60,519 nt of DNA from Chlorobiaceae bacterium (GTDB lineage: Bacteria; Bacteroidota; Chlorobiia; Chlorobiales; Chlorobiaceae), in NCBI GenBank assembly GCA_013335405.1, contig JAAXVR010000011.1, forward strand, positions 1-60,519, written 5' to 3'. The position numbers were made by a program, and so were the translations under genes. Under the pieces are notes generated by a model, which worked only from the letters and a program-made list of their open reading frames with translations, was not told the DNA's origin and searched no databases. Positions 1-47,480 of this stretch are shown here, piece after piece (position 1 is the first letter of the stretch; every line of letters starts with the position of its first letter).

Positions 1-127
1 TTTGGTCACTTTTAATATCGCCGTTTCTCAAGTTTTTTTCAGACCTTCTTTATTTTTTTTACCGGACACTATTGGTTGCAAATTGCTAAATTTCATTACA
101 CATAAAAAGATTCTGATGTGAATTACG
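1..127. repeat. 127-bp direct repeat, copy A
   Basis: This sequence is repeated exactly at 2197-2323. The two copies diverge immediately after the shared ATTACG, at 127 and 2323. Copy A begins at the window edge, so the true repeat may be longer. The pair brackets about 2.07 kb holding the first RAYT element and a broken DUF1828 gene. It looks like the trace of a duplication, or of an insertion mediated by recombination. Confidence 0.9.
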
Positions 128-138
128 AAAGAGGAATA

Positions 139-1275
139 GGGGACGCAGTGCAATAGCGTAGAAGATTGTATTTGGCCGTGCAGTGAGAAAACAAATGATG
201 TGTGCTGGCAGCTTTTGTAAAGCAAAAGACAAGAAAGCCAAATACCACGAGGAGCGAGACTTGACACACCGGGAACGCTGCATCATGTAATGGTGCGGGG
301 AATTGAACATGGTAGTATCGTTCGCGACGATAGCGACAGAGTGGAATTTCTTCGCCGTATGGGTTTGCTGGCGAAAACATCGGGTACAAGCATCTACGCA
401 TTTGCTCTGATGACGAACCATGCACATATCCTGCTCAAAAGCGGATCCATCGGATTGTCTCTCTACATGCGCAGGCTGTTGTCGGGATATGCGCAATATT
501 TCAACAGACGACATAAACGCGTAGGCCATCTATTTCAGAACCGGTACAAATCGGTTATCTGCGAAGAAGAGGCATACTTCGATAAACTGGTGGCTTACAT
601 CCATCTCAATCCGTTGCGGGCTGGACTTGTTGCCTCATTGCGAGAGCTGGCCTTGTATCCCTGGAGCGGTCATGCTGCAATCATGAAAAAGGTATGCTGC
701 GACTGGGTGGAGAGGGAATATGTGCTGCACTGTTTCGGAAGCAGGGAAGGAGCGGCAAGAGAAGCGTATCTGGCGTTTCTTGAAGAAGAAATGGGTATCG
801 ATCGTGAAAAGGAATTTTCCGGAGGCGGATTACTTCGCTCGCATGGCGGGTGGGAGCAGGTACAATCCATGCGTAAAAAAGGTACCAAAGTGCTCAGCGA
901 CGAGCGGATTATCGGTAGTGATGCGTTTGTTCGGGACGTGTTGAAAGAAGCGGAAGAGCGCATGGCGCTGCCGTTATCGGCAGACGAACGTTCGATGTTG
1001 ATTAACGAGGATATTGAACAGGAATGCCGTAAAGCGGGTATAACGGAGGCATTTCTGCGATCCGGAAGCAGGAGCGGGATGTTGGCGTCGATAAGAAAAG
1101 GGCTTGCGCTGAAGTTTGTCTATGATTATGGTTTATCGATGGCCGAAACCGGAAGGCGGTTGGGAGTGACGATGAATGCGGTGGGTTATATGGTGAGAAA
1201 CAGGTGAATCGTTGCTCGCACGAGCCTGAAGCGGAAATCCGTGATAGCCGATTGCTTCTATTGCACTACGTCCCC
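139..1275 (+). mobile_element. RAYT element 1 bounded by 18-bp inverted repeats
   Basis: The left end at 139-156 reads ggggacgcagtgcaatag. The right end at 1258-1275 is its reverse complement with 17 of 18 bases matching. The only gene between them is a RAYT-family transposase. Just outside the right end, the minus-strand DUF1828 gene loses its homology right after the codons for GIPNR. The element therefore appears to have landed in, or rearranged, that gene. No target-site duplication is evident. The boundaries are inferred from the inverted repeat and the homology break. Confidence 0.6.
290..1207 (+). CDS. REP-associated tyrosine transposase (RAYT, Y1_Tnp domain), start codon damaged
   Basis: This is a member of the IS200/IS605-like Y1 transposase superfamily, RAYT/TnpA_REP branch. 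These are single-strand DNA nucleases that act on REP-like hairpins. The HUH-type metal-binding motif is seen as ALMTNHAHILLKS, and the family motif GHLFQNRYKS and the YIHLNPLRAGLV block follow. The C-terminal part carries the SDERIIGSD segment shared with the second copy at 5480. The best family start would be at 242, where the reading frame gives IPRGARLDTPGTLHHV but the codon is ATA instead of ATG. The first in-frame ATG is at 290 and would remove about 16 conserved residues. An in-frame stop at 218 rules out an earlier start. The gene may therefore be poorly expressed or inactive. It lies inside a pair of inverted repeats. Confidence 0.85.
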   Translation: MVRGIEHGSIVRDDSDRVEFLRRMGLLAKTSGTSIYAFALMTNHAHILLKSGSIGLSLYMRRLLSGYAQYFNRRHKRVGHLFQNRYKSVICEEEAYFDKLVAYIHLNPLRAGLVASLRELALYPWSGHAAIMKKVCCDWVEREYVLHCFGSREGAAREAYLAFLEEEMGIDREKEFSGGGLLRSHGGWEQVQSMRKKGTKVLSDERIIGSDAFVRDVLKEAEERMALPLSADERSMLINEDIEQECRKAGITEAFLRSGSRSGMLASIRKGLALKFVYDYGLSMAETGRRLGVTMNAVGYMVRNR

Positions 1276-1867
1276 GAAATGCTCCTCGATTAGGAATACC
1301 GAAAAGAAAGACCGGAGCTTCTTTTCCTTCTATTCTGTAATCTATCGGGTAATCCGATGCATTATCAATTTCTTCGTAGAGATAATCCTGCCTGATCTTC
1401 TCGGTGGGAACAAATCTGAAAAGAGATTCCCTCAGATCATCGTAAAACGTTGATTCAACCCTTGACCTTTTTAAAAAACTCAGGTCAAAAATACTCGTGA
1501 TGGCCTGGCCCAGGCGAAATATATCGGCAGCAAGATTTTCAGGCGACGTATCGATACATAGAGATCCTTGCCGCTCTTCAACAGAGGTTTCTGACTTGAT
1601 CTTTTCAAAAAGCAGACCTCTCGTGCCTTCACGCAACTTATCGATATCATGTTCATAGCTCAAATGCATGAGAGTATGGCCCATATCTGAAAGACGCAGG
1701 ATTCCGCCTGGCAATATTTTTATGTACAGCTGATACTGATCTCCATCAGGAAACGTAAACGGAGTATCCACAGCCAGAATGTCAGGCGTTTTTTCCCTGA
1801 CGTGCACCTCGCTGCACATCGCATTGCAAAGTGTTTTCTGCAGGAATGTAACATCGATAGTCATCAT
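1133..1867 (-). CDS. DUF1828 domain protein, C-terminally truncated
   Basis: The N-terminal half has the DUF1828 pattern (FPDGDQYQLYIKILPGGILRLSDMG). It continues into the start of the DUF1829-like part (EAPVFLFGIPNR). Homology then stops abruptly near nucleotide 1287. The remaining 50 or so codons read first through the inverted-repeat end of RAYT element 1 and then antisense through the 3' end of the transposase gene. I infer that the normal C-terminus was lost when the RAYT element arrived. The function of DUF1828 proteins is unknown to me. The start ATGATG overlaps a TGA that ends a 26-residue open stretch upstream, so the gene was once probably translationally coupled to another gene that is now gone. 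It is best read as a gene remnant. Confidence 0.6.
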   Translation of the reverse strand: MMTIDVTFLQKTLCNAMCSEVHVREKTPDILAVDTPFTFPDGDQYQLYIKILPGGILRLSDMGHTLMHLSYEHDIDKLREGTRGLLFEKIKSETSVEERQGSLCIDTSPENLAADIFRLGQAITSIFDLSFLKRSRVESTFYDDLRESLFRFVPTEKIRQDYLYEEIDNASDYPIDYRIEGKEAPVFLFGIPNRGAFRGRSAIEAIGYHGFPLQARASNDSPVSHHITHRIHRHSQPPSGFGHR

Positions 1868-2196
1868 TCAAACAAATCAATCTGGTTTGGATCAATAGTA
1901 TCAGAGGTCAATCCTTCAATATGGCAATCCCTGAAAAGGAAATTTCAAAAAGAGTAGGAAGAATAACACCGGCTCAAGAGCAGAAAAAGCTGAAGCCGCC
2001 CCGAAGGACGGCTTCGTAACTCTTTCCACACATGGTAGATGAGCTTCTTTAAGATCGGCTTTAGCAGGCAAATAGTCAAGAAAATAATGAAGCGGGCGAG
2101 GAGTAGGGGTAAGTAGGCTGGGGGTGAAATTCCTCCGGCCTACTTACCCTCATTTTCGCTCATTTTCGTGCTTGTGAATAGGGCTGATATCAATCG
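1868..2196. other. Intergenic stretch with remnants
   Basis: No convincing complete gene is seen. On the minus strand, about 26 codons ending in DPNQIDLFE run into the ATGA overlap with the DUF1828 start. This suggests the tail of a lost upstream gene. On the plus strand a 32-codon open frame (1921-2019) begins MAIPEKEISKRVGRITPAQ, with no clear ribosome binding site. A hairpin lies at 1992-2015, with arms gaagccg and cggcttc. The rest shows no recognisable structure. Confidence 0.4.
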
Positions 2197-2323
2197 TTTG
2201 GTCACTTTTAATATCGCCGTTTCTCAAGTTTTTTTCAGACCTTCTTTATTTTTTTTACCGGACACTATTGGTTGCAAATTGCTAAATTTCATTACACATA
2301 AAAAGATTCTGATGTGAATTACG
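2197..2323. repeat. 127-bp direct repeat, copy B
   Basis: This is an exact copy of 1-127. It ends 124 bases before the start of the Ivy-like gene. Homologous recombination with copy A would delete 2196 bp, including RAYT element 1 and the DUF1828 remnant. Confidence 0.9.
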
Positions 2324-2447
2324 GGACGATATTCATTTCGAGTAGTTATTATTCTACCGTAATCTGTTTATTGCAGGCTTTTACAGAAAAAATGGATTCT
2401 ATAACTGCAATTATTATCGTAAATAAATCTTATTTCATGGAGCGAAC

Positions 2448-2867
2448 ATGAACCACAGAATATGGACGGTATCAGCAATGCTGATATGCTTTACTTTGGG
2501 CAATTCGTATCAGTGTCGTCAGGCAGTAGCTGCCGATGCACCGTATTTGTTCGATCTCGTAAAAAAGCCGACCTATAAAAAGGCATGGGAGGGGATGTTC
2601 AGGCATGAAAAGGGAGTCCCGGTATGGCTTGTCAGGGTAGAAGGACCTGCGACACCTGTTGAACAAGTGAAGGCGAACGGAGTTACTTACCAGCATACAA
2701 GTGTCTGCAAGGCACACGACTGCGCCAGCAATATGTTTCATGTTATTTTCTCTGCAGATGGCAGGAAAGCCTGGGGCCTTCTGCTCGTGAACGAAACAAA
2801 TGAACGTTTCTTTGGAGCCCCTGATGCCCGGATGCAGGTGCTGCTGAGGAACGTCTTGCAACAGTGA
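2448..2867 (+). CDS. ivy: Ivy-family C-type lysozyme inhibitor, periplasmic
   Basis: This is a 139-residue protein with an N-terminal signal peptide (about residues 1-29, hydrophobic core AMLICFTLGNS, cleavage near AVAADA). The inhibitory loop CKAHDC, characteristic of Ivy (CKPHDC in E. coli Ivy), is at about residues 88-93. Ivy proteins block C-type lysozyme in the periplasm, and some also restrain endogenous lytic transglycosylases. The length is close to the usual 125-155 residues. The start at 2448 is supported by an upstream atggag and by the signal peptide. It stands alone, flanked by repeats, so recent acquisition is plausible. Family assignment is by motif and overall layout. Confidence 0.8.
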   Translation: MNHRIWTVSAMLICFTLGNSYQCRQAVAADAPYLFDLVKKPTYKKAWEGMFRHEKGVPVWLVRVEGPATPVEQVKANGVTYQHTSVCKAHDCASNMFHVIFSADGRKAWGLLLVNETNERFFGAPDARMQVLLRNVLQQ

Positions 2868-2906
2868 AGGCGCGCTGACTATTTTTTTGGTTTTTCAGGA
2901 TTGCAT

Positions 2907-3200
2907 ATGATATCAGTTCTTTTTTCACCATCAGCTGTCGCCTTAAAGATCTTCACCGACAAGGAATGTCAGGAAGATTCAGTTGTTCGAAAATATCGAA
3001 TGAGTGCATGCAAGCTTGGGGACGTAGATGAAAAAGTAAAAAAGTATATTGTTTGTTATATTTTCAAAAGAGATTGTCTTTGGCCATCAGCATGCTTTAT
3101 GTATGATGCCGATAGGAGAACCTGGACGCAGTGCAATAGCGGCAGGGAAGTATTGAAGTCAGACTGGAGCGGAGGGGAGCTGTTCAATAAAATGGTTTGA
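2907..3200 (+). CDS. Uncertain small cysteine-rich ORF overlapping repeats
   Basis: This is an open frame of about 97 codons from an ATG at 2907; a TTG two codons upstream is also possible. It has several cysteines (KECQ, SACKL, IVCY, RDCLW, SACF, TQCNS) but no signal peptide and no family I recognise. Part of it is made of dispersed repeat sequence: cttggggacgta at 3015-3026, and a copy of the RAYT-linked repeat at 3124-3139. It may therefore be a chance ORF running through repeats. Low confidence that it is a real gene. Confidence 0.25.
   Translation: MISVLFSPSAVALKIFTDKECQEDSVVRKYRMSACKLGDVDEKVKKYIVCYIFKRDCLWPSACFMYDADRRTWTQCNSGREVLKSDWSGGELFNKMV
3124..3139 (+). repeat. RAYT-linked GGACG repeat
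   Basis: The sequence ggacgcagtgcaatag matches the left end of RAYT element 1 (139-156) exactly over 16 bases. It is one of at least seven copies in this window. Confidence 0.7.
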
Positions 3201-3279
3201 CCTGCATGGCCAATGGATGAAAACAGTTGCTTAAATGGAAGACATGATTGTCTTTGAAAAAGCTCTGGAAGCTGACGAT

Positions 3280-3954
3280 TTACGTTCGCAGACCGACAAG
3301 TAATTTTACGAGGTTACCGACAGCTGTATATGGTTTTGGATGAGTGTAAGCTGAGTTATACTGCCCCAGTTTTTCAGCACGCGAGAATGCTGACCTCAGA
3401 TGTTCAGAAGTTCTCTTAAAGGTTCCTTTGTTTCCTTTTTCGTATTCGGGGATATGCTTTTTCAGTCGCCGAAGAACTTCATGACGATCGATTTCCGTGC
3501 TAACATTTTCGAAATGAAGCAGTAACCAGAGTTCGAAACTGGGTATTGAAGGAACTGCATGGAATCGTATCAACTGTTTGTTGTCGTTCCTGAGTTTGCC
3601 GTCAAGCGATTCAGCAACTCTCAATGCATTTGAATAACTCTCGTGATCGTCGCGGTCAAACACGGCAAAGACTTTCTCGAAGGCGAGACGCTGGATGTTT
3701 CGGTGCCTGTCCCCCTCAAGAAAAAGCTGTTTCGCGTAGTGGACAACCTGAATTGGAGCTGTTCCAAGTTCGCTGGGACGTACCACGACGTTGGCGGTGT
3801 GCAGACGAAATGTGGAACGGATTTCCTCAAAGTAGTTTGATTCGGTTTTGCTTCCCTCCGACACAATCAATATTCGGTCATAGCTGGCTCGTCGTCCCTG
3901 CTTTCGTTCCAGCTGTCTTTTCTGCCGGATTTTAGGCGAATTATCACGTCCCAT
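3280..3954 (-). CDS. RloB-family (TOPRIM-like) protein, second gene of an AAA15/RloB pair
   Basis: This 224-residue protein has the RloB pattern. A basic N-terminus is followed by ILIVSEGSKTESNYF (about residues 28-42, with the TOPRIM-like glutamate). Next comes VFAVFDRDDH, the acidic DxD-type motif, near residue 95. The C-terminus carries THPKPYTAVGNLVKLL. RloB domains are thought to be TOPRIM-type nucleases. Those paired with an AAA15 ATPase occur in abortive-infection systems such as AbiL (AbiLi/AbiLii) and are analogous to the AriA/AriB pair of PARIS. It starts 5 bases after the stop of the ATPase gene, so the two form a tight operon. The nuclease role is inferred from the family; no target is known from the sequence. 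Confidence 0.8.
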   Translation of the reverse strand: MGRDNSPKIRQKRQLERKQGRRASYDRILIVSEGSKTESNYFEEIRSTFRLHTANVVVRPSELGTAPIQVVHYAKQLFLEGDRHRNIQRLAFEKVFAVFDRDDHESYSNALRVAESLDGKLRNDNKQLIRFHAVPSIPSFELWLLLHFENVSTEIDRHEVLRRLKKHIPEYEKGNKGTFKRTSEHLRSAFSRAEKLGQYNSAYTHPKPYTAVGNLVKLLVGLRT

Positions 3955-3959
3955 CAGTC

Positions 3960-5222
3960 TTACTCCCCTGAATGATGGGACAGAAAGGGAATGCCCCCAT
4001 ATCTACCACTCAAGTACCCTTTCCCCAAAGCCTCGTTTTTGCGGGGACTGAATTCCGCAACAGCTACCAATGTTGAGGCTTGGCTGGTATCTTTTTCAAC
4101 GAGCCATATCTGATCCCGTCGGAACAGATCCGGTGTGTCGAGCAGGGATGTGTCATGTGTCGTGAAAATCAGTTGCGCTCCCCGCTTGTTTATTTCAGGG
4201 CGATGGAAAAGCCTTACAAGCTCTCTTACCAGAAGGGTGTGCAGGCTGGTGTCCAGTTCATCGATAACCAGTGTAAGACCCTTGTCGAGAATATCGAGGA
4301 TTGGTGCGGCAAGGAATACCAGAATACGCGTACCATTGGACTCATCATCAAGATCGAAGACTGCTTGCCCTCGATCAGTGACATGGGTGAAACGCAATCT
4401 ACTTTCTTCGATTTCTTCATTTCGAACCTCAGTTTTTCCGGATGTCAGATCAAAATGCACCTCTTGTCCGGGCACTTTATCGGTAACGATTTCGATATCA
4501 GCAATACTGATGTCTGCTGTTTTGAGGAAGTCGCATATCCGTTTTTTACTTTCTGCATTTTTTATCAGCTGAATAGCAAACTGTCTGTTGAGTCTGGTTT
4601 GTTCATTGAAGATCACCAGATTTCGTGCAAACCAGTCGAAAACCGGACGTAAATCTTCACTATTGAGTTGTACTGCCATCGACAAAAACAAGGCATTCTG
4701 CCGGGTGGTTTTTTCCCAGAGGGTTTTCAGCCCTTTGAGTCCGGTTCCGTAATCGTAGACATCTCTATCCTCGTCTGGGTCGTAATGGCGATCAAACCAT
4801 TGTTGGGGTTTGAACGCTTTGTAAACCAGAAGATACTCGCTGACAATCCTTTTCGATGTCATGCTGAAACCATACTGATACCGTACATGATCCAGTACAA
4901 AAGTGACTTCGAATTCAGTAGGCTCCTTTTCTGATAAAAGGTCAAGCATGAACGGTTGTAGGGCGAATGTCTGTCCTGGTTGTATCATGGTGGCCGATTC
5001 GACTACAACCCCGCGCATGAACTGCAACGCTTTGATGAGATTGGATTTTCCACTGGCATTGGCACCATAGATTACGGCGCTTGGCAAAATCCGAGGTACT
5101 GCCTTGATCCCTGTGGTCAGAGTGTTGGTGTCGCTCAGCGAGTTGTCTTTAGCGGCCGCGAGACTGAGTACCTGCTCATCACGCAGGCTCCTGAAGTTCT
5201 TGACGCGAAATTCGATGAGCAT
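3960..5222 (-). CDS. AAA15-family ATPase (RloA/AbiLi-like), partner of RloB
   Basis: This is a 420-residue SMC/OLD-type ATPase. The N-terminal signature FRVKNFRSL is at residues 5-13. Walker A, GANASGKS, is at 53-60. A late Walker B region LTLVIDELDTSLHTLL and the H-motif LIFTTHDTSLLD follow. It lacks a C-terminal TOPRIM domain of its own; the RloB protein encoded directly downstream would supply one. The start MLIEFRVKNF is typical for the family. The pair lies between two RAYT elements, which supports horizontal gain. The likely role is the sensor/assembly part of an anti-phage system. That is inferred from family and pairing and has not been shown for this locus. Confidence 0.8.
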   Translation of the reverse strand: MLIEFRVKNFRSLRDEQVLSLAAAKDNSLSDTNTLTTGIKAVPRILPSAVIYGANASGKSNLIKALQFMRGVVVESATMIQPGQTFALQPFMLDLLSEKEPTEFEVTFVLDHVRYQYGFSMTSKRIVSEYLLVYKAFKPQQWFDRHYDPDEDRDVYDYGTGLKGLKTLWEKTTRQNALFLSMAVQLNSEDLRPVFDWFARNLVIFNEQTRLNRQFAIQLIKNAESKKRICDFLKTADISIADIEIVTDKVPGQEVHFDLTSGKTEVRNEEIEESRLRFTHVTDRGQAVFDLDDESNGTRILVFLAAPILDILDKGLTLVIDELDTSLHTLLVRELVRLFHRPEINKRGAQLIFTTHDTSLLDTPDLFRRDQIWLVEKDTSQASTLVAVAEFSPRKNEALGKGYLSGRYGGIPFLSHHSGE

Positions 5223-5399
5223 ATTATTGTGTCTTGTTTAAGAATAAACTTAATTTACGAAGAATATTTGCAATAATATAGAATATTTTTTATTGCTGAT
5301 GTTTTTTATACAGGAGTCTGGACGTATCGGGTGACATCTCTTTCAACCAAAGAGGCCAAAAAGGTTTTTTGGGTGCTGAAGCTGATTGCTGGGCGCTCA

Positions 5400-6486
5400 G
5401 GGACGTTCCTGAAATCATGAACTTGCAATGACCACATTGCAGCGTTAACTTTCTCCGATACAAACCAACCAGTAGAAGCATGCCGAGAGGTCCAAGACTC
5501 GATTCGCCTGGCACGTTGCATCATGTGATTATCCGGGGGATCGAAAAAAAAGAGATCGTTGCCGATGATAAAGATCGGGGAATATTCGTATCCAGAATGG
5601 GGTCGGTTGCCTTGAAAACGGGAACGAATATCTATGCCTGGGCGCTGATGACCAATCATGCGCATATCCTTCTCAAAAGCGGTCAACCGGGACTTTCCGC
5701 ATTCATGAGGAAGTTCCTTACCGGATACTCGATCAGCTACAATCGACGTCACGAAAGGCACGGTCATCTATTCCAGAACCGATACAAGTCAATCGTCTGT
5801 GAAGAGGATGCCTGTTTCCTTAAACTGGTAAGTTACATTCACCTCAATCCCTTGCGGGCGGGACTGGTGACGATGTTCGAAGAGCTGGAGCACTACCCCT
5901 GGAGCGGCCATGCAGCGGTCATGGGCAGGAAAGCGTATGAATGGCAGGATTCAGACTATGTGCTCGGCTGTTTCGGAGAACGGGTCGGCACGGCACGAAC
6001 GGCTTATCTGGAGTTCATGCAGCAAGAGGGTAAGCTTGGCCGACAGCCTGAACTGACCGGCGGAGGGCTGATTCGTTCGGCAGGAGGCTGGTCAGAGGTG
6101 TTGTCGATGAAGCGACGGGGTGAACGACAATTCAGCGATGAGAGAATACTCGGCAGTGGAGAGTTCGCTCAAGAGGTGATTGCTGAGGCTGATGCATCGG
6201 TGAGAGAAAAGGTTCCGCTGGCAAAGGGATGCCCGGAAGTTATCGAGCTGGTCGAGCGTTGCTGCCAAAGGTATGGCGTCAGTCGGCAGGCTCTGGAGAA
6301 CGGCTGTCGCCGAAAAGAGTTCTCCGAAATCAGGAAAGAGCTTGCGATGACGCTGGTATTCGAGATGGGTTTATCGTATGCCCGGACGTCTCCGCTGCTT
6401 GGGGTATCGGCATCTGCAGTGTGCCAGATTATCAAAACAGCTGCCGCTGCTGATTGCAAGTAACTTAATGATTTCAGGAACGTCCC
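5400..6486 (+). mobile_element. RAYT element 2 bounded by perfect 19-bp inverted repeats
   Basis: The left end at 5400-5418 reads gggacgttcctgaaatcat. The right end at 6468-6486 is its exact reverse complement. After a short gap on each side the inner sequences acttgcaat and attgcaagt pair as well, so the inverted repeat extends about ten more bases. The right arm reaches into the last codons of the transposase gene. This is the layout expected of a RAYT gene flanked by its target sequences. A partial copy of the left end and gene start recurs at 47347-47480. Confidence 0.7.
5480..6463 (+). CDS. REP-associated tyrosine transposase (RAYT), intact copy
   Basis: This is a 327-residue RAYT protein with the expected N-terminus MPRGPRLDSPGTLHHVIIRG. 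The HUH motif lies in ALMTNHAHILLKS, and SYNRRHERHGHLFQNRYKS and YIHLNPLRAGLV follow. A C-terminal region ending in a helix-turn-helix-like segment (SYARTSPLLGVSASAVCQII) completes it. It is clearly homologous to the copy at 290-1207 along its whole length but well diverged from it. It has a normal ATG start and no frame damage, so it could be active. The gene ends inside the right inverted repeat, so gene and target sequence overlap. RAYTs cut and rejoin single-stranded DNA at REP hairpins; whether it acts on the GGGACG repeats here is inference. Confidence 0.9.
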   Translation: MPRGPRLDSPGTLHHVIIRGIEKKEIVADDKDRGIFVSRMGSVALKTGTNIYAWALMTNHAHILLKSGQPGLSAFMRKFLTGYSISYNRRHERHGHLFQNRYKSIVCEEDACFLKLVSYIHLNPLRAGLVTMFEELEHYPWSGHAAVMGRKAYEWQDSDYVLGCFGERVGTARTAYLEFMQQEGKLGRQPELTGGGLIRSAGGWSEVLSMKRRGERQFSDERILGSGEFAQEVIAEADASVREKVPLAKGCPEVIELVERCCQRYGVSRQALENGCRRKEFSEIRKELAMTLVFEMGLSYARTSPLLGVSASAVCQIIKTAAAADCK

Positions 6487-6504
6487 GCAGTCTGGGAGTT
6501 CCTG
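6475..6504 (+). repeat. Hairpin at the right end of RAYT element 2
   Basis: The arms caggaac and gttcctg, together with inner tccc and ggga, form an 11-bp stem interrupted by a single bulge. It overlaps the right inverted repeat. It may be the REP-like structure recognised by the transposase or a weak transcription stop. No T-run follows, so an intrinsic terminator is unlikely. Confidence 0.5.
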
Positions 6505-6589
6505 ATAAAGCAGCGGCGTCTGTTTGTACCCCTGGTTAAAATTACAGATCTTACCGTAACGAAATCAATAATTCTGTGTGAGGGAGGAT

Positions 6590-6919
6590 ATGCACTGGTT
6601 ATACCTTATCATTGCCATCGTATGCGAAGTCACGGCAACTTCGGCACTGAAAGCAACGGAAGGATTTACCCGCGTTATTCCTTCCATAATCGTTATTGCG
6701 GGTTACTCCACATCTTTTTATTTCCTTTCCCTCACCCTCCGAACCTTTCCGATAGGGATTGTCTATGCCGTCTGGTCCGGTGTGGGCATCGTGCTGATAG
6801 CGATAGCGGGCTGGATTGTTTACCAGCAGAAACTCGATATGGCCGCCCTTGCCGGCATCGGGCTCATCATCGCAGGAGTGATCGTGATCAATGTGTTTTC
6901 GAAATCGGTAATGCATTGA
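6590..6919 (+). CDS. Small multidrug resistance (SMR/EmrE-like) efflux protein
   Basis: This protein of about 109 residues has four predicted membrane helices and belongs to the DMT/SMR family. The essential membrane glutamate is E13 in LIIAIVCEVTATSALK. The loop-2/helix-3 block GIVYAVWSGVGIVLIAIAGW is typical of EmrE/QacE rather than of the Gdx guanidinium exporters, which carry different residues there. It probably works as a homodimer exchanging protons for cationic drugs. The ATG at 6590 is preferred over the GTG at 6578 because gggaggat lies just ahead of it and EmrE proteins start MxxxYLxxAI. It stands alone directly after RAYT element 2. Confidence 0.88.
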   Translation: MHWLYLIIAIVCEVTATSALKATEGFTRVIPSIIVIAGYSTSFYFLSLTLRTFPIGIVYAVWSGVGIVLIAIAGWIVYQQKLDMAALAGIGLIIAGVIVINVFSKSVMH

Positions 6920-7201
6920 GGGGGTGAGGCAGGAAGAACATTGAGTAATGGGACGGATGAACGGACTGGATGACCGGAAAATAATTCTTCCGCATGGCAA
7001 CTGCAGCGAGCTGCTATCCTGGAAGAAGGCCGAGGTGATCTAAGACGTGACCTGGGCGTTTCCTACAAAAAGGGGATCGCGATATCGATAAGCGGTGAAT
7101 CGACCGGGGGAGAGTACGAAAAATGCGATGATATCTGGCGAAAGAGTTCAGGTTCAGGTAAATTGAATCGTTATTCAGATCAAGACAATTGCAATAATAT
7201 T

Positions 7202-7729
7202 ATGAGAGTATTCGTTTCTGTAACGGTCGCTTCAGTGCTCGCTTTCCTGTTCGTTTCCGGGAATGTATCGGCCGAATCGGCAAAAGAACATATAAAAATC
7301 GGCGAGAGCTTTTATGAAAAAGGGCTGTTCAGGGAGTCGCTGGCCGAGCTCGATCTTGCGGTTGCCGGTGACAGAAATTCACGGCACGCATGGTATGCCC
7401 ATGGAAAAACGCTCTACGAGCTTGGTGAGTACCGGGCTGCGATTGCGGATTTTTCCAGGGCACTTGAACTCAAAAAGAACTGCCATCGTTACCATTATCA
7501 GAGAGGGCGGTGTTACGTCGCACTGAAAGAGTATGAGAAGGCGGTTGCGGATTTCAGCGAAGCGATCGAGATAAAATCCGATTATGACAAGGCGTATTTC
7601 GCCCGTGGTCAGGTGGCATTCGAATTGAATGATACTGTCAAGGCATACGAAGATATGCGGTCGGCAGGGAAACTCGGCAACACCGAAGCATCCGTCTGGC
7701 TTGAAACTCACGGTGCTGAAAACCGGTGA
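7202..7729 (+). CDS. Secreted tetratricopeptide-repeat protein
   Basis: From the ATG at 7202 the product is about 175 residues. A signal peptide (VTVASVLAFLFVSGNVSAES) is followed by three to four TPR units. Repeat signatures include AWYAHGKTLYELGEYRAAIADFSRAL, HYQRGRCYVALKEYEKAVADFSEAI and AYFARGQVAFELNDTVKAYEDM. It is probably a periplasmic scaffold for protein-protein contacts; the partner is unknown. An upstream TTG at 7163 would add 13 residues ahead of the signal peptide and is less likely. There is no strong ribosome binding site, and no neighbour suggests a pathway. Confidence 0.75.
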   Translation: MRVFVSVTVASVLAFLFVSGNVSAESAKEHIKIGESFYEKGLFRESLAELDLAVAGDRNSRHAWYAHGKTLYELGEYRAAIADFSRALELKKNCHRYHYQRGRCYVALKEYEKAVADFSEAIEIKSDYDKAYFARGQVAFELNDTVKAYEDMRSAGKLGNTEASVWLETHGAENR

Positions 7730-7856
7730 TTGTTTCCGGAACGGCTTCCGGCTGATGATTTTCATGAATGTATATTGCTGTTGAATGATTGATTTGCCAT
7801 CTTTTTTCGTTGTATGTATACAAGGCGGTTTTTGAACCAGACAGCAGGAGGATGCC

Positions 7857-8165
7857 ATGACGACTGAAATCAAGGAATATCATATCCTTTTTTACGGCAG
7901 TCCCGAGGGATATCAGACAAATCGAGCCCAGATAGCGCTGTATGGACCGGCAGGTTCTGTTGCCGGATATATCAGGTTCAATGACCCCGGCATGGTGTTT
8001 GAAAATGACAGCCAGTCCGGTAATGTTATTATCATGCACCTGCCATCAGCAATGCTGCAAAGCGTAATCGATGTGCTTCGTAACGAAAAACCGATCTATA
8101 TCTATTTCGCGCAGGGCAGGGGATTCCTTTCGACATCGAAGGAGCCTGCAGGAGAAGGGGAGTAG
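7857..8165 (+). CDS. Conserved small protein of unknown function
   Basis: The product is 102 residues with no signal peptide or membrane segment. It starts from an ATG six bases after a consensus AGGAGG at 7846-7851, one of the best ribosome binding sites in the window. Its central block (RAQIALYGPAGSVAGYIRF, MHLPSAMLQSVIDVLRNEKPI, IYFAQGRGFLSTS) looks like that of a conserved family of short bacterial proteins without a named function. I do not recognise a fold. It lies between a TPR gene and the convergent RTX gene. Confidence 0.7.
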   Translation: MTTEIKEYHILFYGSPEGYQTNRAQIALYGPAGSVAGYIRFNDPGMVFENDSQSGNVIIMHLPSAMLQSVIDVLRNEKPIYIYFAQGRGFLSTSKEPAGEGE

Positions 8166-8189
8166 TATTGATTTCCTGATTTTGCGTTA

Positions 8190-8215
8190 TCCGGCCGCTC
8201 AGTGCGAAGGCCGGA
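8190..8215 (+). terminator. Possible hairpin stop after the 7857 gene
   Basis: The arms tccggcc and ggccgga (7 bp, 12-base loop) lie 24 bases after the stop codon. No T-run follows, so this is only a candidate transcription stop. Confidence 0.35.
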
Positions 8216-8315
8216 GGTTACTGAATCACAGCGGTTTCACGGGATAAAAACCTCAAACGGCATTTTTCTGGCGGGGTTCAGCCCATATGATCCGGTTGAC
8301 GATAACTTCCGCATC

Positions 8316-8366
8316 GTTGCACCTGACATCTTCAAACACCATGTGTTCAAAGGTTTCAGGTGCAAC
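8316..8366 (-). terminator. Long imperfect hairpin downstream of the RTX gene
   Basis: Two 24-base arms around a 3-base loop pair at about 20 of 24 positions. The outermost 11 bases are perfect (gttgcacctga and tcaggtgcaac). It lies about 39 bases beyond the stop of the minus-strand RTX gene, between convergent genes. It could stop or protect the RTX transcript, or be a palindromic repeat. There is no clear T-run on either side. Confidence 0.5.
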
Positions 8367-8404
8367 AATCGATGAAGCTTTACTTTTCGGTATCGATGCG
8401 GCAA

Positions 8405-11400
8405 TCAGAAAACGATTTTTTCAGCCGTCAGTATCTCGTCGTGGGTAAGTTCGTAATAATCAATATTGCTGTCCGTCACAAGGTATTTGTTCACCGTGAT
8501 GCTGCCGAGAGAAGTTGGACCCGAATTAAAAGATATCAAGCTCGAGTCGGCTTTCTTGTCGCTGTTGGAGTCGAAATAATCAATTTTATAGGTAATGTTT
8601 GCCTCGGCATTTTCGCCGGCGATAACGATAAGGTCTCCCTGGGCCGGGTTGAAGTCAAGGATCGTGTCGCTGCCGATGCCTTGTGTGTAAGGATCAGTAC
8701 CGATCGGGGCAAAAATGAACATGTCTGCGCCGCTGCCTCCCGTCATGGTGTCTCCGGATGTATCATACATCGAAACCAGCATGTCGTTTCCGTTTCCACC
8801 CGACAAATAATCGGCACCGCTGCCGTCCGCAAGGATATCGTCATCGTCGTTTCCGTAGAGGATATCGTTCCCGTATCCGCCTGAAAGCAGGTCACTGCCG
8901 TAACCTCCCAGAATGCTGTCATTTCCGTCATTGCCGTAAATGGAATCGTTTCCATTGTCACCTTTCATGGAATCGTTTCCGATTCCACCAAAAAGGGAAT
9001 CGTTCCCGTCGCTTCCGGAAAACAGGTCGTTGCCCTCTCCGCCATCGAGATAGTCATTTTCAGTTCCGCCATTGAGATAGTCTTTTCCTGATCCCCCGAT
9101 AAGCGTATCATTTCCTGCCTGTCCATACAGAGAATCATCGCCGGATCCTGCTTCGAGGCTGTCATTTCCTGCCCCTCCGTTGAGAGAATCATTTCCATCG
9201 TTTCCATACAGAAAATCAATGCCGTTGTCTCCCGACAGAGTGTCGTTGCCGATTCCTGCAGTCAGGGTGTCATTACCTTCTCCTCCGTAGAAGCGGTTGG
9301 TTCCGGACAGGTCATAAAGGGAATCATTGCCGTTACCGCCTGAGAGATAATCGCTTCCTTCGCCTCCATTCAGGGAGTCGTTTCCGTCGTCCCCGCTGAG
9401 CGTGTCGTTTCCGCTTCCCGCATCGATGATGTCGATACCAGAACCGCCATAGACGATATCGTTGCCTGCATCTGCCGTGATGGAGTCGTCGCCGGTATCC
9501 CCGTAAATGGAGTCGTTGCCCGCTCCCGCCGTGATGGTGTCGTTGCCGTCCCCTCCCGAATATTTGTTGTCTCCCAGGATATCGTAGAGGATATCGTTCC
9601 CGTATCCTCCGGAGAGATAATCCTTGCCGTCATTGCCAGAGAGAGAATCGTCTCCGTTGTCCCCGTAAAGAGAGTCGTTACCTGCGCCTGCAGTCAGTAA
9701 ATCGTTGCCGTCCCCACCGGAAAGCTTGTTGTTGCCAAGTGAGTCGATGAGGATGTCATTGGCACTCCCTCCGCCGAGATAATCGTTTCCGTCGCCTCCG
9801 TTCAGGGAGTCGTTTCCGTCGTCCCCGCTGAGCGTGTCGTTTCCGCTTCCCGCATCGATGATGTCGATCCCTGAACCGCCATAGACGATATCGTTGCCTG
9901 CATTTGCCGTGATGGAGTCGTCACCTCCATCCCCGTAAATGGAGTCGTTGCCCGCTCCCGCCGTGATGATGTCGTTGCCGTCCCCTCCCGAATACCTGTT
10001 GTCTCCCAGGATATCGTAGAGAATATCGTTCCCGTATCCTCCGGAGAGATAATCCTTGCCGTCATTGCCAGAGAGAGAGTCGTCTCCGTTGTCCCCGTAA
10101 AGAGAGTCGTTACCTGCGCCTGCAGTCAGTAAATCGTTGCCGTCTCCACCGGAAATCTTGTTGCTGCCCAGAGTGTCGGTGAGGATGTCCTCTCCTGCTC
10201 CGCCTCCCAGATAATCGTTGCCGTCACCTCCATTCAGGGAGTCGTTTCCGTCGTCCCCGTTGAGCGTGTCGTTTCCGCTTCCCGCATCGATGATATCAAT
10301 CCCTGAACCGCCATAGACGATATCGTTGCCTTCATCAGCCGTGATGGAGTCGTCGCCGGTATCCCCGTAAATGGAGTCGTTGCCTGCTCCCGCCGTGATG
10401 GTGTCGTTGCCGTCCCCTCCCGAATACTTGTTGTTTCCGGAAACATCGCAGAGAATGTCATTGCCGTTTCCGCCGTAAAGAGAATCGCTGCCTGTTCCTG
10501 CGGTCAGCGAATCGTTGCCGTCGCCACCGGAAAGCTTGTTGTCGCCCGCAGTGTCGTCGAGGATGTCATTGCCTCCGCCTCCACCCAGATAATCGTTGCC
10601 TGATCCGCCAGTTATAGAGTCGTCTCCATCGTCACCATTGAGGTAATCGTTTCCTGTTCCGCCAACGATCATATCAGATCCTGAACCTGCATACACACTA
10701 TTGTCGCCATCACCCGCCACTATGGAGTCATTCCCGGAATCCCCGCAGAGGGTGTCGTTTCCCGAACCTGCGGTCAGCAAATCGTTGCCGTCGCCACCGG
10801 AAAGCTTGTTATCCCCCTCAGTGTCTGTCATGAAGTCATCACCCTTTCCGCCATAAAGCTCATCGCCACCCTTTCCGCCATCGAGCGTATCGTTTCCGTC
10901 GTCGCCAGTGAGCCAGTCGCTTCCATCTCCGGCGATGAGAGAATCATTGCCTTCGCCTCCGGAAAGCCCGTCGTCTCCGGCTGTATCGGCAAGGATGTCG
11001 TCGCCGGTTCCGCCACCGAGATAATCGTTGCCGGTTCCTCCAGTGAGCGTATCGTTCCCTTCGTCTCCGCAAAGCCAGTTTTCGCCACTGCCGGCGATGA
11101 GAGAATCGTCGCCTTTTCCTCCGGAAAGCCCGTTGTCTCCGGAAGAATCGATGAGGATGTCATTGCCATCTCCCCCTGCGAGATAATCATTTCCATTTCC
11201 TCCGATGAGCGTATCGTTTCCCTCGTCACCCGAGAGGCAGTCGTCTCCATCGCCGGCGGTCAGAGAGTCGTCGCCTTCACCTCCGGAAAACCCGTTGTCA
11301 TCTGAAATATCGGAGAGGATATCATCTCCTGCTCCTCCGGAAAGATAATCGTTTCCGCTTCCGCCGATGATCGTGTCGTTGCCTTCGTCGCCCGAGAAGC

Positions 11401-13333
11401 AGTCGTCGGATTCACTGGCTGTCAGGGAGTCATTTCCTTCAGCGCTTACCAGCAGATTATTTTCAGCATTGTCGATGAGGATGTCGTTTCCGGTTCCTCC
11501 GGAAAGGTAGTCAATGCCGTTTCCGCTGGTCAGGGTGTCGTCTCCGTCATCGCCCGAGAGGCAGTCGTTGCCGTTGCCCGCCACAAGCGAATCGTTTCCT
11601 TTTCCTCCGGAAAACCCGTTGTCTCCCGACAGATCGGTCATGATATCATTACCGCTTCCGCCTCCCAGCCAGTCATTGCCGTTTCCACCGTCTATCGTGT
11701 CATCGCCGCCGTCACCGTAAACACCATCATCACCATCCCGGGCATAGATCACTTCTGCACTGTTCAAACCAGGTAACCAGTCCGAACTGTTCGTCCCGTA
11801 GATGATTTCACTGTTCAGGTAAAAATAATTGAGCCAGGTGGCAAGCTCGGCCGTATCCGCATTCTGATCGCCGTCCTCATTGAGAACGTAGTAATTGCCA
11901 TCTTCGTCATTGTAGACTATTTCAAATCCGAGATGGTAAATCCCGTCGGCGACGGTATTGATGAGATTTTCGCCGCGGAAGTCGATGGAAGAACCGTCAT
12001 TCTGCACAAGGTGATACCCTGTCTCCTCTCCGTCTTCATCGTCTCCATGGAGAGCCGTCCATGCCTCCAGGAGCGATACCGTAGCTCCCTGATAGGTATA
12101 GGTATGGTTGGGGTCCCTGATGTACTCATTGATGGTTATAATATCTTCAGGGTCGATAACTCCGTCTACTGCAACACCGGTATTCGTGATTGCCTCGGCG
12201 AGAATCTTGTTCATTTCGTTTGCCGCATCTGCACCGGTGTTGATATCGGCGGCCGAAGTCCAGGTCGAGAGTCCGGGATCGCTTTTTACTGCATCCGTCA
12301 GTCGGTCAAGTCCTGTGCCGGTTGTAGACTGGTCGACGTAAAAATACTGGACCCAGCTTGCCAGTCTGGTCAGGCTTGCGTTTTTGGTTCCGTCTTCATT
12401 GAGGATATATTCAGTGCCATTATAGACCTTGGTTTGAAAACCGAGATGATAAATCCCGTCGGCGACCGTATCGACCATATTTTTTCCGAACATCACAGTC
12501 CATGATCCGTCGTTCTGCACAAGGTGAAACCCGGTTTCTCCACCGGTTTCATCATCGCCGTGCAATGCGGTCCATTCTTCGAGGTGATTTTCCCGGATAT
12601 ACGTGTTGATTTTTTTAATGTCATCCGCAGTAATCGTTCCGTCAACGGCTACTCCGGTTTCAGTGATCGCTTCGACGATGATCTCGTTCATCCGGTTGGC
12701 CATATCGGCGGCTGTGGCTATTTCCGTATCGGTGATTTTCTTGTCGAGCCCCTCGTCAGCCATGATGAGGTTTGTAATCCTGTCGAAACCGGTACCCGTC
12801 GTCGAATGGTCGGTATAAAACTGGGTCATCCATTCGGAAAGCTGCTGCAGGGAAGCGTTCGGGTCTCCGTCCTCATTGAGGATGTAGTCGCCATCGATTT
12901 CAAAACCCAAATGGTAGATGCCGTCGGCGACAGTGTTGACGAGGTTGTCCCCCCTGTATTGCGCTGTCGCGCCGTCGTTCTGAACGAGATGGTATCCTGT
13001 TTCAAGGCAGTTTTCGTCATCGCCGTGAAGCATTGTCCATTCATCGAGGTAGGTATCCCTGATATAGGTGTTGATGGCAATGATTTCATCAACGGTAAAG
13101 ACTGCGTCAGCTCCGGAGTTTGTGTAAGCAATGGCTTCAAGAAGTATCTCGTTCATCCTTGCTGCTGCCCTGGCGCCGGACTCGATATCGACGGGCGAAA
13201 TGCTGCCTGCAAGTCCGGGGTCGGTCCGGACGGCATCGACCAACTGCGATAACCCTGTTCCGGTAACGACAGGTAAAACAGGTGTCGGAATAAGTTGCGG
13301 TTCCGGTGCGGGCGTAATGGTGGCAGGTACCAT
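8405..13333 (-). CDS. Giant RTX (hemolysin-type calcium-binding repeat) protein with triplicated N-terminal module
   Basis: The product is 1642 residues. An N-terminal proline-rich stub (PATITPAPEPQLIPTP) is followed by three copies of a module of about 155 residues (roughly residues 25-515). Each module carries EWTxLHGDDE, ETGxHLVQNDG and NTVADGIYHLGF. About 1000 residues of RTX nonapeptides (GGxGxDxLx pattern) follow, then a C-terminal tail of about 110 residues without repeats, ending DEILTAEKIVF. RTX proteins bind calcium outside the cell and leave through a type I exporter using a C-terminal signal. No Sec signal peptide is present, in agreement with this. No exporter gene is in the window. 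The function of the N-terminal module is unknown to me; adhesin or S-layer-like roles are possible. The start has no strong ribosome binding site. Confidence 0.88.
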   Translation of the reverse strand: MVPATITPAPEPQLIPTPVLPVVTGTGLSQLVDAVRTDPGLAGSISPVDIESGARAAARMNEILLEAIAYTNSGADAVFTVDEIIAINTYIRDTYLDEWTMLHGDDENCLETGYHLVQNDGATAQYRGDNLVNTVADGIYHLGFEIDGDYILNEDGDPNASLQQLSEWMTQFYTDHSTTGTGFDRITNLIMADEGLDKKITDTEIATAADMANRMNEIIVEAITETGVAVDGTITADDIKKINTYIRENHLEEWTALHGDDETGGETGFHLVQNDGSWTVMFGKNMVDTVADGIYHLGFQTKVYNGTEYILNEDGTKNASLTRLASWVQYFYVDQSTTGTGLDRLTDAVKSDPGLSTWTSAADINTGADAANEMNKILAEAITNTGVAVDGVIDPEDIITINEYIRDPNHTYTYQGATVSLLEAWTALHGDDEDGEETGYHLVQNDGSSIDFRGENLINTVADGIYHLGFEIVYNDEDGNYYVLNEDGDQNADTAELATWLNYFYLNSEIIYGTNSSDWLPGLNSAEVIYARDGDDGVYGDGGDDTIDGGNGNDWLGGGSGNDIMTDLSGDNGFSGGKGNDSLVAGNGNDCLSGDDGDDTLTSGNGIDYLSGGTGNDILIDNAENNLLVSAEGNDSLTASESDDCFSGDEGNDTIIGGSGNDYLSGGAGDDILSDISDDNGFSGGEGDDSLTAGDGDDCLSGDEGNDTLIGGNGNDYLAGGDGNDILIDSSGDNGLSGGKGDDSLIAGSGENWLCGDEGNDTLTGGTGNDYLGGGTGDDILADTAGDDGLSGGEGNDSLIAGDGSDWLTGDDGNDTLDGGKGGDELYGGKGDDFMTDTEGDNKLSGGDGNDLLTAGSGNDTLCGDSGNDSIVAGDGDNSVYAGSGSDMIVGGTGNDYLNGDDGDDSITGGSGNDYLGGGGGNDILDDTAGDNKLSGGDGNDSLTAGTGSDSLYGGNGNDILCDVSGNNKYSGGDGNDTITAGAGNDSIYGDTGDDSITADEGNDIVYGGSGIDIIDAGSGNDTLNGDDGNDSLNGGDGNDYLGGGAGEDILTDTLGSNKISGGDGNDLLTAGAGNDSLYGDNGDDSLSGNDGKDYLSGGYGNDILYDILGDNRYSGGDGNDIITAGAGNDSIYGDGGDDSITANAGNDIVYGGSGIDIIDAGSGNDTLSGDDGNDSLNGGDGNDYLGGGSANDILIDSLGNNKLSGGDGNDLLTAGAGNDSLYGDNGDDSLSGNDGKDYLSGGYGNDILYDILGDNKYSGGDGNDTITAGAGNDSIYGDTGDDSITADAGNDIVYGGSGIDIIDAGSGNDTLSGDDGNDSLNGGEGSDYLSGGNGNDSLYDLSGTNRFYGGEGNDTLTAGIGNDTLSGDNGIDFLYGNDGNDSLNGGAGNDSLEAGSGDDSLYGQAGNDTLIGGSGKDYLNGGTENDYLDGGEGNDLFSGSDGNDSLFGGIGNDSMKGDNGNDSIYGNDGNDSILGGYGSDLLSGGYGNDILYGNDDDDILADGSGADYLSGGNGNDMLVSMYDTSGDTMTGGSGADMFIFAPIGTDPYTQGIGSDTILDFNPAQGDLIVIAGENAEANITYKIDYFDSNSDKKADSSLISFNSGPTSLGSITVNKYLVTDSNIDYYELTHDEILTAEKIVF
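9362..10440 (-). repeat. 432-bp tandem amplification inside the RTX gene
   Basis: Near-identical sequence recurs at a spacing of 432 bp (for example at 9370, 9802 and 10234). This gives about two and a half copies. One unit equals 144 residues, or sixteen nonapeptides. The copies differ at few bases, so the duplications are recent relative to the other, more diverged nonapeptides in the gene. Confidence 0.8.
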
Positions 13334-47346: not shown

Positions 47347-47480
47347 GGATGTTCCTGAAATCATGAACTTGCAATGACCATAATGCAGCATCAACTTTCT
47401 ACAATACAAACCAAACAGTAGAGGCATGCCGAGAGGTCCGTCCATGGCTCGAATCGCCGGACACGTTGCATCATGTTACA
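47347..47480 (+). pseudogene. Decayed 5' end of a RAYT element
   Basis: From ggatgttcctgaaatcatg through cagtagaggc to atgccgagaggtcc, this closely follows the left end and gene start of RAYT element 2 (5401-5500). After four codons (MPRG) small insertions and deletions break the frame. The stretch cacgttgcatcatg and a trailing taatcc still align. The rest of the transposase gene is missing here; another fragment is at 48478-48590. Confidence 0.75.

What the first reader, a model, noticed from the sequence alone, without database searches (positions are those of the whole stretch)
3280..5222. AAA15 ATPase + RloB pair: AbiL-like anti-phage candidate between two RAYT elements
Seen: two genes 5 bases apart, one with SMC/OLD-type ATPase motifs (GANASGKS, IDELDTSLHTLL) and one with RloB/TOPRIM-like motifs (VSEGSKTESNYF, FDRDDH). 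Known: this pairing occurs in the AbiL system and is analogous to AriA/AriB of PARIS. Inference: this is a mobile defence cassette in a green sulfur bacterium. It sits beside an Ivy gene and between RAYT elements, so it may represent a variable defence slot.
Basis: partly seen in the sequence, partly recalled or inferred. Interest (0 to 1): 0.7.

Follow-up and report, generated by a model that had tools for sequence, protein, structure and literature searches.

The report
AbiL-type anti-phage gene pair
Two neighbouring genes in a green sulfur bacterium encode an ATPase and its partner nuclease-like protein of the known AbiL anti-phage type, a mobile pair that has jumped between bacterial phyla; it is an intact new member of a known kind, not a new system.

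Summary
In detail: an ATPase gene (3960-5222, minus) and an rloB gene (3280-3954, minus) lie 5 bases apart with every motif named. Profile searches place them as AbiLi (PADLOC 2e-101, far ahead of PARIS AriA 2e-39) and AbiLii/RloB (Pfam 1e-38, PADLOC 1e-23). The RloB profile aligns with OLD-type TOPRIM domains in register at the Glu and DxD motifs, above all 40 shuffles. Across 392 phylum genomes, 68 of 75 rloB copies sit next to such an ATPase, and the two proteins co-diverge (r = 0.96). The pair is patchy, about 90% identical at three different chromosomal sites, absent from a close relative at one of them (154 bp versus about 2.5 kb), and its clade is nested inside Betaproteobacteria. Copies sit beside type I RM, PglX and AbiE genes, and in prophages. 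Where only one gene is broken it is rloB seven times of eight, as expected if RloB is the toxic effector. The two RAYTs look like bystanders. Most likely an AbiL abortive-infection system in which the ATPase holds and releases the nuclease. New member of a known kind; phage resistance was not tested.

The parts
3960..5222 (-). AbiLi-type SMC/OLD-like AAA ATPase (420 aa): Walker A GANASGKS, signature-like DDESNGTR, Walker B LVIDELD, His switch TTHDTS
   Evidence: Pfam AAA_21 3.2e-39, PADLOC AbiLi 2.1e-101; AF2 pLDDT 84, Foldseek Rad50/SMC/PtuA; motif residues invariant or nearly so in 113 pairs
3280..3954 (-). AbiLii/RloB (224 aa), TOPRIM-like putative nuclease effector: E33-G34, D100xD102, plus conserved E38, Y41, E141, W143, H147
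   Evidence: Pfam RloB 9.6e-39, PADLOC AbiLii 1.4e-23; AF2 pLDDT 83 with E33 just after strand 1 and DxD at the end of strand 3; hhalign to OLD TOPRIM E 3.4e-4 in register
3955..3959 (-). 5-base intergenic gap; a ribosome-binding-like AGGGGAG lies at the end of the ATPase gene
   Evidence: Sequence; in relatives the estimated junction is most often a 1-base stop/start overlap (43 of 123 full pairs)
2448..2867 (+). Ivy (lysozyme inhibitor) gene, neighbour, not part of the system
   Evidence: PF08816 4.7e-22; none in 75 relatives
5480..6463 (+). RAYT/IS200-like transposase gene, neighbour, not part of the system
   Evidence: PF01797 8.4e-9; inverted REP-like arms 5400-5429 and 6453-6486
290..1207 (+). 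second RAYT/IS200-like transposase gene, neighbour, not part of the system
   Evidence: PF01797 2.1e-9

Best explanation
A complete AbiL-type two-gene abortive-infection system. The SMC/OLD-like ATPase (AbiLi) acts as sensor and keeper; the TOPRIM-like RloB (AbiLii) is the toxic nuclease effector. In uninfected cells the ATPase holds RloB inactive; a phage protein or phage activity is sensed through the ATP-bound assembly, RloB is released or activated, and it cuts nucleic acid (tRNA by analogy with AriB, or DNA as in GajA), stopping growth before the phage matures. Shown here: family identity, tight pairing, co-inheritance, mobility, motif conservation, and preferential loss of RloB. Inferred: neutralisation, the trigger, the substrate and the phage phenotype.
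For: AbiLi and AbiLii profiles; the same profiles hit the Lactococcus proPhi7 pair annotated 'abortive phage resistance protein', its ATPase 30% identical end to end and its RloB matching our profile at E 4e-22. 68 of 75 rloB places are adjacent to the ATPase; Mantel r 0.956 over 113 pairs against 0.156 for the best of 999 permutations. RloB aligns with OLD TOPRIM in register, score 32 against 15.5 for the best of 40 shuffles. One-gene lesions hit rloB 7:1 (P 0.035, or 0.003 weighted by gene length). Neighbours elsewhere: hsdMSR, PglX plus DUF1016, AbiE, CHAT; prophage copies. The ATPase also pairs with HEPN RNases. Published: F. nucleatum AbiLii is toxic in E. coli (PMC3985639); a C. algidicarnis RloB-type toxin is listed as validated in neutralisation assays with its AAA partner (PMC10440598).
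Against: No phage assay exists for this pair and none was found for any Chlorobi copy. F. nucleatum AbiLi did not neutralise its AbiLii, and L. lactis AbiLii alone was not toxic in E. coli (PMC3985639). The RloB model has no significant PDB match, so TOPRIM rests on motifs and a modest profile match. Several Chlorobi copies (G024, G057, G010) sit among housekeeping-type genes, not defence genes, and the window itself shows no other defence gene next to the pair. The lesion asymmetry rests on eight cases, some in MAGs.
Confidence: 0.85

Rival explanations
1. A selfish toxin-antitoxin (addiction) pair: RloB toxin, ATPase antitoxin, kept by post-segregational killing rather than by phage defence.
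For: Toxicity and neutralisation are published for homologues (PMC10440598, PMC3985639); plasmid and prophage carriage; rloB is lost first.
Against: The founding member, L. lactis AbiL, was isolated as a phage-resistance determinant (Deng 1999, as cited in PMC10440598); several copies lie beside restriction and AbiE genes. The two roles are not exclusive.
Confidence: 0.08
2. An accessory factor of restriction-modification or DNA repair (restriction-linked ORF, Rad50-like ATPase with a TOPRIM nuclease) rather than a stand-alone abortive system.
For: RloB proteins were first noted in type I RM operons (PMC10440598); the G074 copy lies 200 bp from hsdM; the ATPase fold matches Rad50/SMC.
Against: No RM gene lies beside the pair in this window or in most copies read; the pair travels alone between sites and phyla.
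Confidence: 0.04
3. A decaying, non-functional remnant carried by chance.
For: Broken relatives are common: 22 of 75 genome loci lack an intact rloB; the G032 and G060 copies are broken.
Against: Both window genes are full length with all conserved residues.
Confidence: 0.03

Closest known systems
AbiL (AbiLi/AbiLii, Lactococcus lactis)
   Same: Two-gene order, ATPase first; AbiLi and AbiLii profile matches across both proteins; the Lactococcus prophage proPhi7 pair has the same layout
   Different: 30% (ATPase) and about 24% (RloB, profile alignment) identity to the Lactococcus prophage copy; chromosomal in a green sulfur bacterium; phage resistance untested
PARIS (AriA/AriB)
   Same: ABC/OLD-type ATPase with a separate TOPRIM effector; likely works in a similar way
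   Different: AriA model scores 134 bits against 337 for AbiLi; the partner is RloB and has no AriB match
AAA(D29)-TOPRIM_OLD(D44) toxin-antitoxin pair of Clostridium algidicarnis (PMC10440598)
   Same: RloB-type toxin paired with an AAA partner that neutralises it
   Different: Not aligned here (sequence not available to the tools); I saw no phage test reported for it
Gabija GajA / OLD nucleases, Septu PtuA
   Same: Same ATPase superfamily and, for OLD proteins, a TOPRIM domain in register with RloB
   Different: GajA/OLD carry ATPase and TOPRIM in one protein; PtuA pairs with an HNH nuclease

Membership tests
AbiL | ATPase matches the AbiLi profile better than other defence ATPases | tested here: met
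   AbiLi 337 bits, next AriA 134.5
AbiL | Partner matches AbiLii / RloB | tested here: met
   AbiLii 1.4e-23, RloB 9.6e-39
AbiL | Two-gene operon, ATPase upstream of RloB, same strand, touching genes | tested here: met
   5-base gap; 68 of 75 rloB places in the phylum
AbiL | Homology to a Lactococcus AbiL pair | tested here: met
   proPhi7: ATPase 30% over 98%, RloB hhalign E 4.1e-22; the original plasmid sequence itself was not compared
AbiL | Phage resistance by abortive infection | not testable with these tools
   Needs plaque and infection assays
PARIS | Partner is the AriB TOPRIM protein | tested here: not met
   No AriB match for the partner in PADLOC or Pfam
TOPRIM fold nuclease | Catalytic Glu after strand 1 and DxD after strand 3 in a beta-alpha fold | tested here: met
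   E33 and D100xD102 placed so in the model and aligned with OLD TOPRIM; in 113 pairs E33 in 103, D100 in all, D102 in 100 with Glu in 13
TOPRIM fold nuclease | Significant structural match to a solved TOPRIM | tested here: inconclusive
   No PDB match below E 0.1
Mobile defence cassette | Present or absent at the same site, and at different sites in relatives | tested here: met
   Empty site in G001, filled in G032; guaB/tRNA-Ser site, hsdM site and window site
RAYT-borne cassette | RAYT or REP ends flank the pair in other copies | tested here: not met
   None seen beside the pair in G032, G074, G025, G060

The most novel reading that the evidence does not exclude
AbiLi-type ATPases are general phage sensors whose nuclease partner is exchanged (RloB, HEPN RNase, an unknown ~150-aa protein), and in the window's branch RloB is a PARIS-like tRNase caged by an ATPase oligomer and freed by a phage trigger.
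Probability: 0.3. Interest if true: 0.5.

Novelty: new member of a known kind. Interest (0 to 1): 0.33.

Why it matters
AbiL was described in 1999, but no target, trigger or structure was found in the papers and PDB sequences searched here. The data give intact, highly conserved pairs, residues to mutate, a clean empty site and a decay pattern that points to RloB as the toxic partner. They also show AbiL moving from Betaproteobacteria into green sulfur bacteria. The exchangeable partners suggest one sensor ATPase serving several nuclease effectors.

Tried and rejected
PARIS membership: AriA weaker than AbiLi and no AriB. RAYT-driven composite element: the two RAYTs share only 67% over 536 bp and do not follow the pair. 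The 127-bp direct repeat (1-127 and 2197-2323) as an element boundary: the window starts at the contig start and the repeat has only these two copies, so a k-mer overlap of the assembly is the simplest reading. Foldseek on the RloB model gave nothing below E 0.1; phmmer against PDB gave nothing for either protein. My first count of absent rloB was wrong because stop-to-stop frames began upstream of the ATPase end; redone. Apparent intact-RloB/broken-ATPase cases in G310 and G051 are contig ends. Attachment site at tRNA-Ser: the pair lies beside the tRNA-Ser cluster in three genomes, but no integrase was seen and no repeat was tested. Rfam found nothing in window 1-9000; promoter and terminator scans were not above shuffles.

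Full report
Observation. The two ORFs exist as stated: ATPase 3960-5222 and rloB 3280-3954, both minus strand, 5 bases apart, with all motifs at the places given. Pfam gives AAA_21 (3.2e-39) and RloB (9.6e-39). Ivy and two IS200/RAYT-type transposase genes flank them.

Family. PADLOC gives AbiLi 337 bits for the ATPase, ahead of AriA 134 and all others, and AbiLii for the partner. A Lactococcus prophage pair (proPhi7), annotated by its depositors as abortive phage resistance proteins, has the same order; its ATPase is 30% identical over 98% and its second protein matches our RloB profile at E 4e-22, and PADLOC calls it AbiLi/AbiLii too. A Klebsiella prophage carries a pair 43% identical in the ATPase, annotated ATP-binding protein and RloB. 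NCBIfam has no matching model for either protein, and neither has a PDB relative by sequence.

Structure. AlphaFold2 gives pLDDT 84 for the ATPase, which Foldseek places with Rad50, SMC heads and PtuA. RloB (pLDDT 83) has E33 just after strand 1 and D100xD102 at the end of strand 3, the TOPRIM layout. Foldseek found no significant PDB match. A direct profile alignment of 18 RloB sequences with 13 OLD-type TOPRIM domains from relatives gave E 3.4e-4, score 32, with EG and DxD in register; 40 column-shuffled controls reached at most 15.5. A short AbiLii-like protein in G025 matches both AbiLii and the TOPRIM part of GajA. In 113 distinct pairs D100, W143 and Y41 are invariant, H147 is in 112, E33 in 103, and D102 is Asp or Glu; the Walker A lysine, Walker B Asp-Glu and His switch are invariant.

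Pairing. In 392 genomes of the phylum, 75 rloB places were found and 68 are adjacent to the ATPase; most of the rest are at contig ends or in rearranged or broken copies. Distances of the two proteins correlate at r = 0.956 (permutation maximum 0.156): they travel together. Some related ATPases have another partner: RiboL-PSP HEPN proteins in two viral contigs (L207, L208), a ~150-aa protein of unknown family in G035 and G052, and a short TOPRIM-like protein in G025. Partner promiscuity of this ATPase group is already described (PMC10440598).

Mobility. 38 of 150 relatives have the ATPase at E 1e-20. Copies 90-92% identical lie beside guaB and three tRNA-Ser genes in G032, G025 and G060, beside a complete type I RM set in G074, and in the window beside Ivy. 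G001, 84-86% identical to G032 around guaB, has 154 bp where G032 has about 2.5 kb with the pair: an empty site. Between G032 and G025 the AbiL genes are more alike (86.5%) than guaB (77.5%) or the neighbouring bchH-like gene (78%), which suggests that the pair was exchanged after the hosts parted. The window's right flank (SMR, TPR, 102-aa ORF) is kept in G030 and G008 without Ivy, AbiL or RAYT; Ivy is in none of 75 relatives. In an 85-row tree the window's four Chlorobi sequences are nested in Betaproteobacteria (98/94 with Cupriavidus), and two other Chlorobi groups fall elsewhere, one next to Geobacter: several arrivals from other phyla. MAG binning errors could affect single rows, hardly the whole pattern.

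Which partner costs. Downstream of an ATPase gene, 22 of 75 bacterial loci lack an intact rloB, against 6 of 76 viral or proviral loci (Fisher P 0.0007; the two sets differ in divergence, so this is only suggestive). In the phylum set, after dropping contig ends, single-gene lesions are 7 in rloB (G397, G359, G190, G032, G354, G010, G049) and 1 in the ATPase (G018). With gene length as weight P is 0.003. This fits RloB as the toxic partner. Literature agrees in part: F. nucleatum AbiLii is toxic in E. coli but was not neutralised by its AbiLi, and L. lactis AbiLii was not toxic (PMC3985639); a C. algidicarnis RloB-type toxin is reported as neutralised by its AAA partner (PMC10440598).

Mechanism. 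By analogy with PARIS, where AriA hexamers hold AriB until a phage trigger frees it to cut tRNA (PMC12409363), I infer an ATPase sensor and a caged or restrained TOPRIM nuclease. Substrate (tRNA or DNA) and trigger are unknown.

Verdict. It is a new, intact member of AbiL in a phylum where it has arrived repeatedly.

Noticed in passing
window 1-127 and 2197-2323: Exact 127-bp direct repeat with only these two copies in the genome; the window starts at the contig start, so this looks like a k=127 assembly-graph end, and the order of RAYT1 and the DUF1828 gene may be uncertain.
   Followed up: partly
window 1133-1867 (minus): DUF1828 protein with no DUF1829 match behind it, ending inside the 3' end of RAYT1: possibly truncated by that element.
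   Followed up: no
window 5400-5429, 6453-6486, 47347-47476: Inverted REP-like arms around RAYT2 and a third 130-bp copy (86%) of its 5' flank about 41 kb away, a REP-type element family.
   Followed up: no
window 2448-2867: Ivy-type lysozyme inhibitor gene found in none of 75 relatives, a separate acquisition in the same slot.
   Followed up: partly
L207 6396-7097, L208 7223-7951: AbiLi-type ATPase paired with a HEPN RiboL-PSP protein in place of RloB in viral contigs.
   Followed up: partly
L076 9080-9535, L261 2038-2478: AbiLi-type ATPase followed by a ~150-aa protein of no known family in Chlorobi G035 and G052: a candidate new effector.
   Followed up: partly
window 8405-13333 (minus): 1642-aa RTX-repeat protein with 39 calcium-binding repeat stretches.
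   Followed up: no
G000 (own assembly): guaB (IMP dehydrogenase) was not found in this 99.99%-complete assembly by DNA or protein search; gap, loss or a miss of the first look.
   Followed up: no
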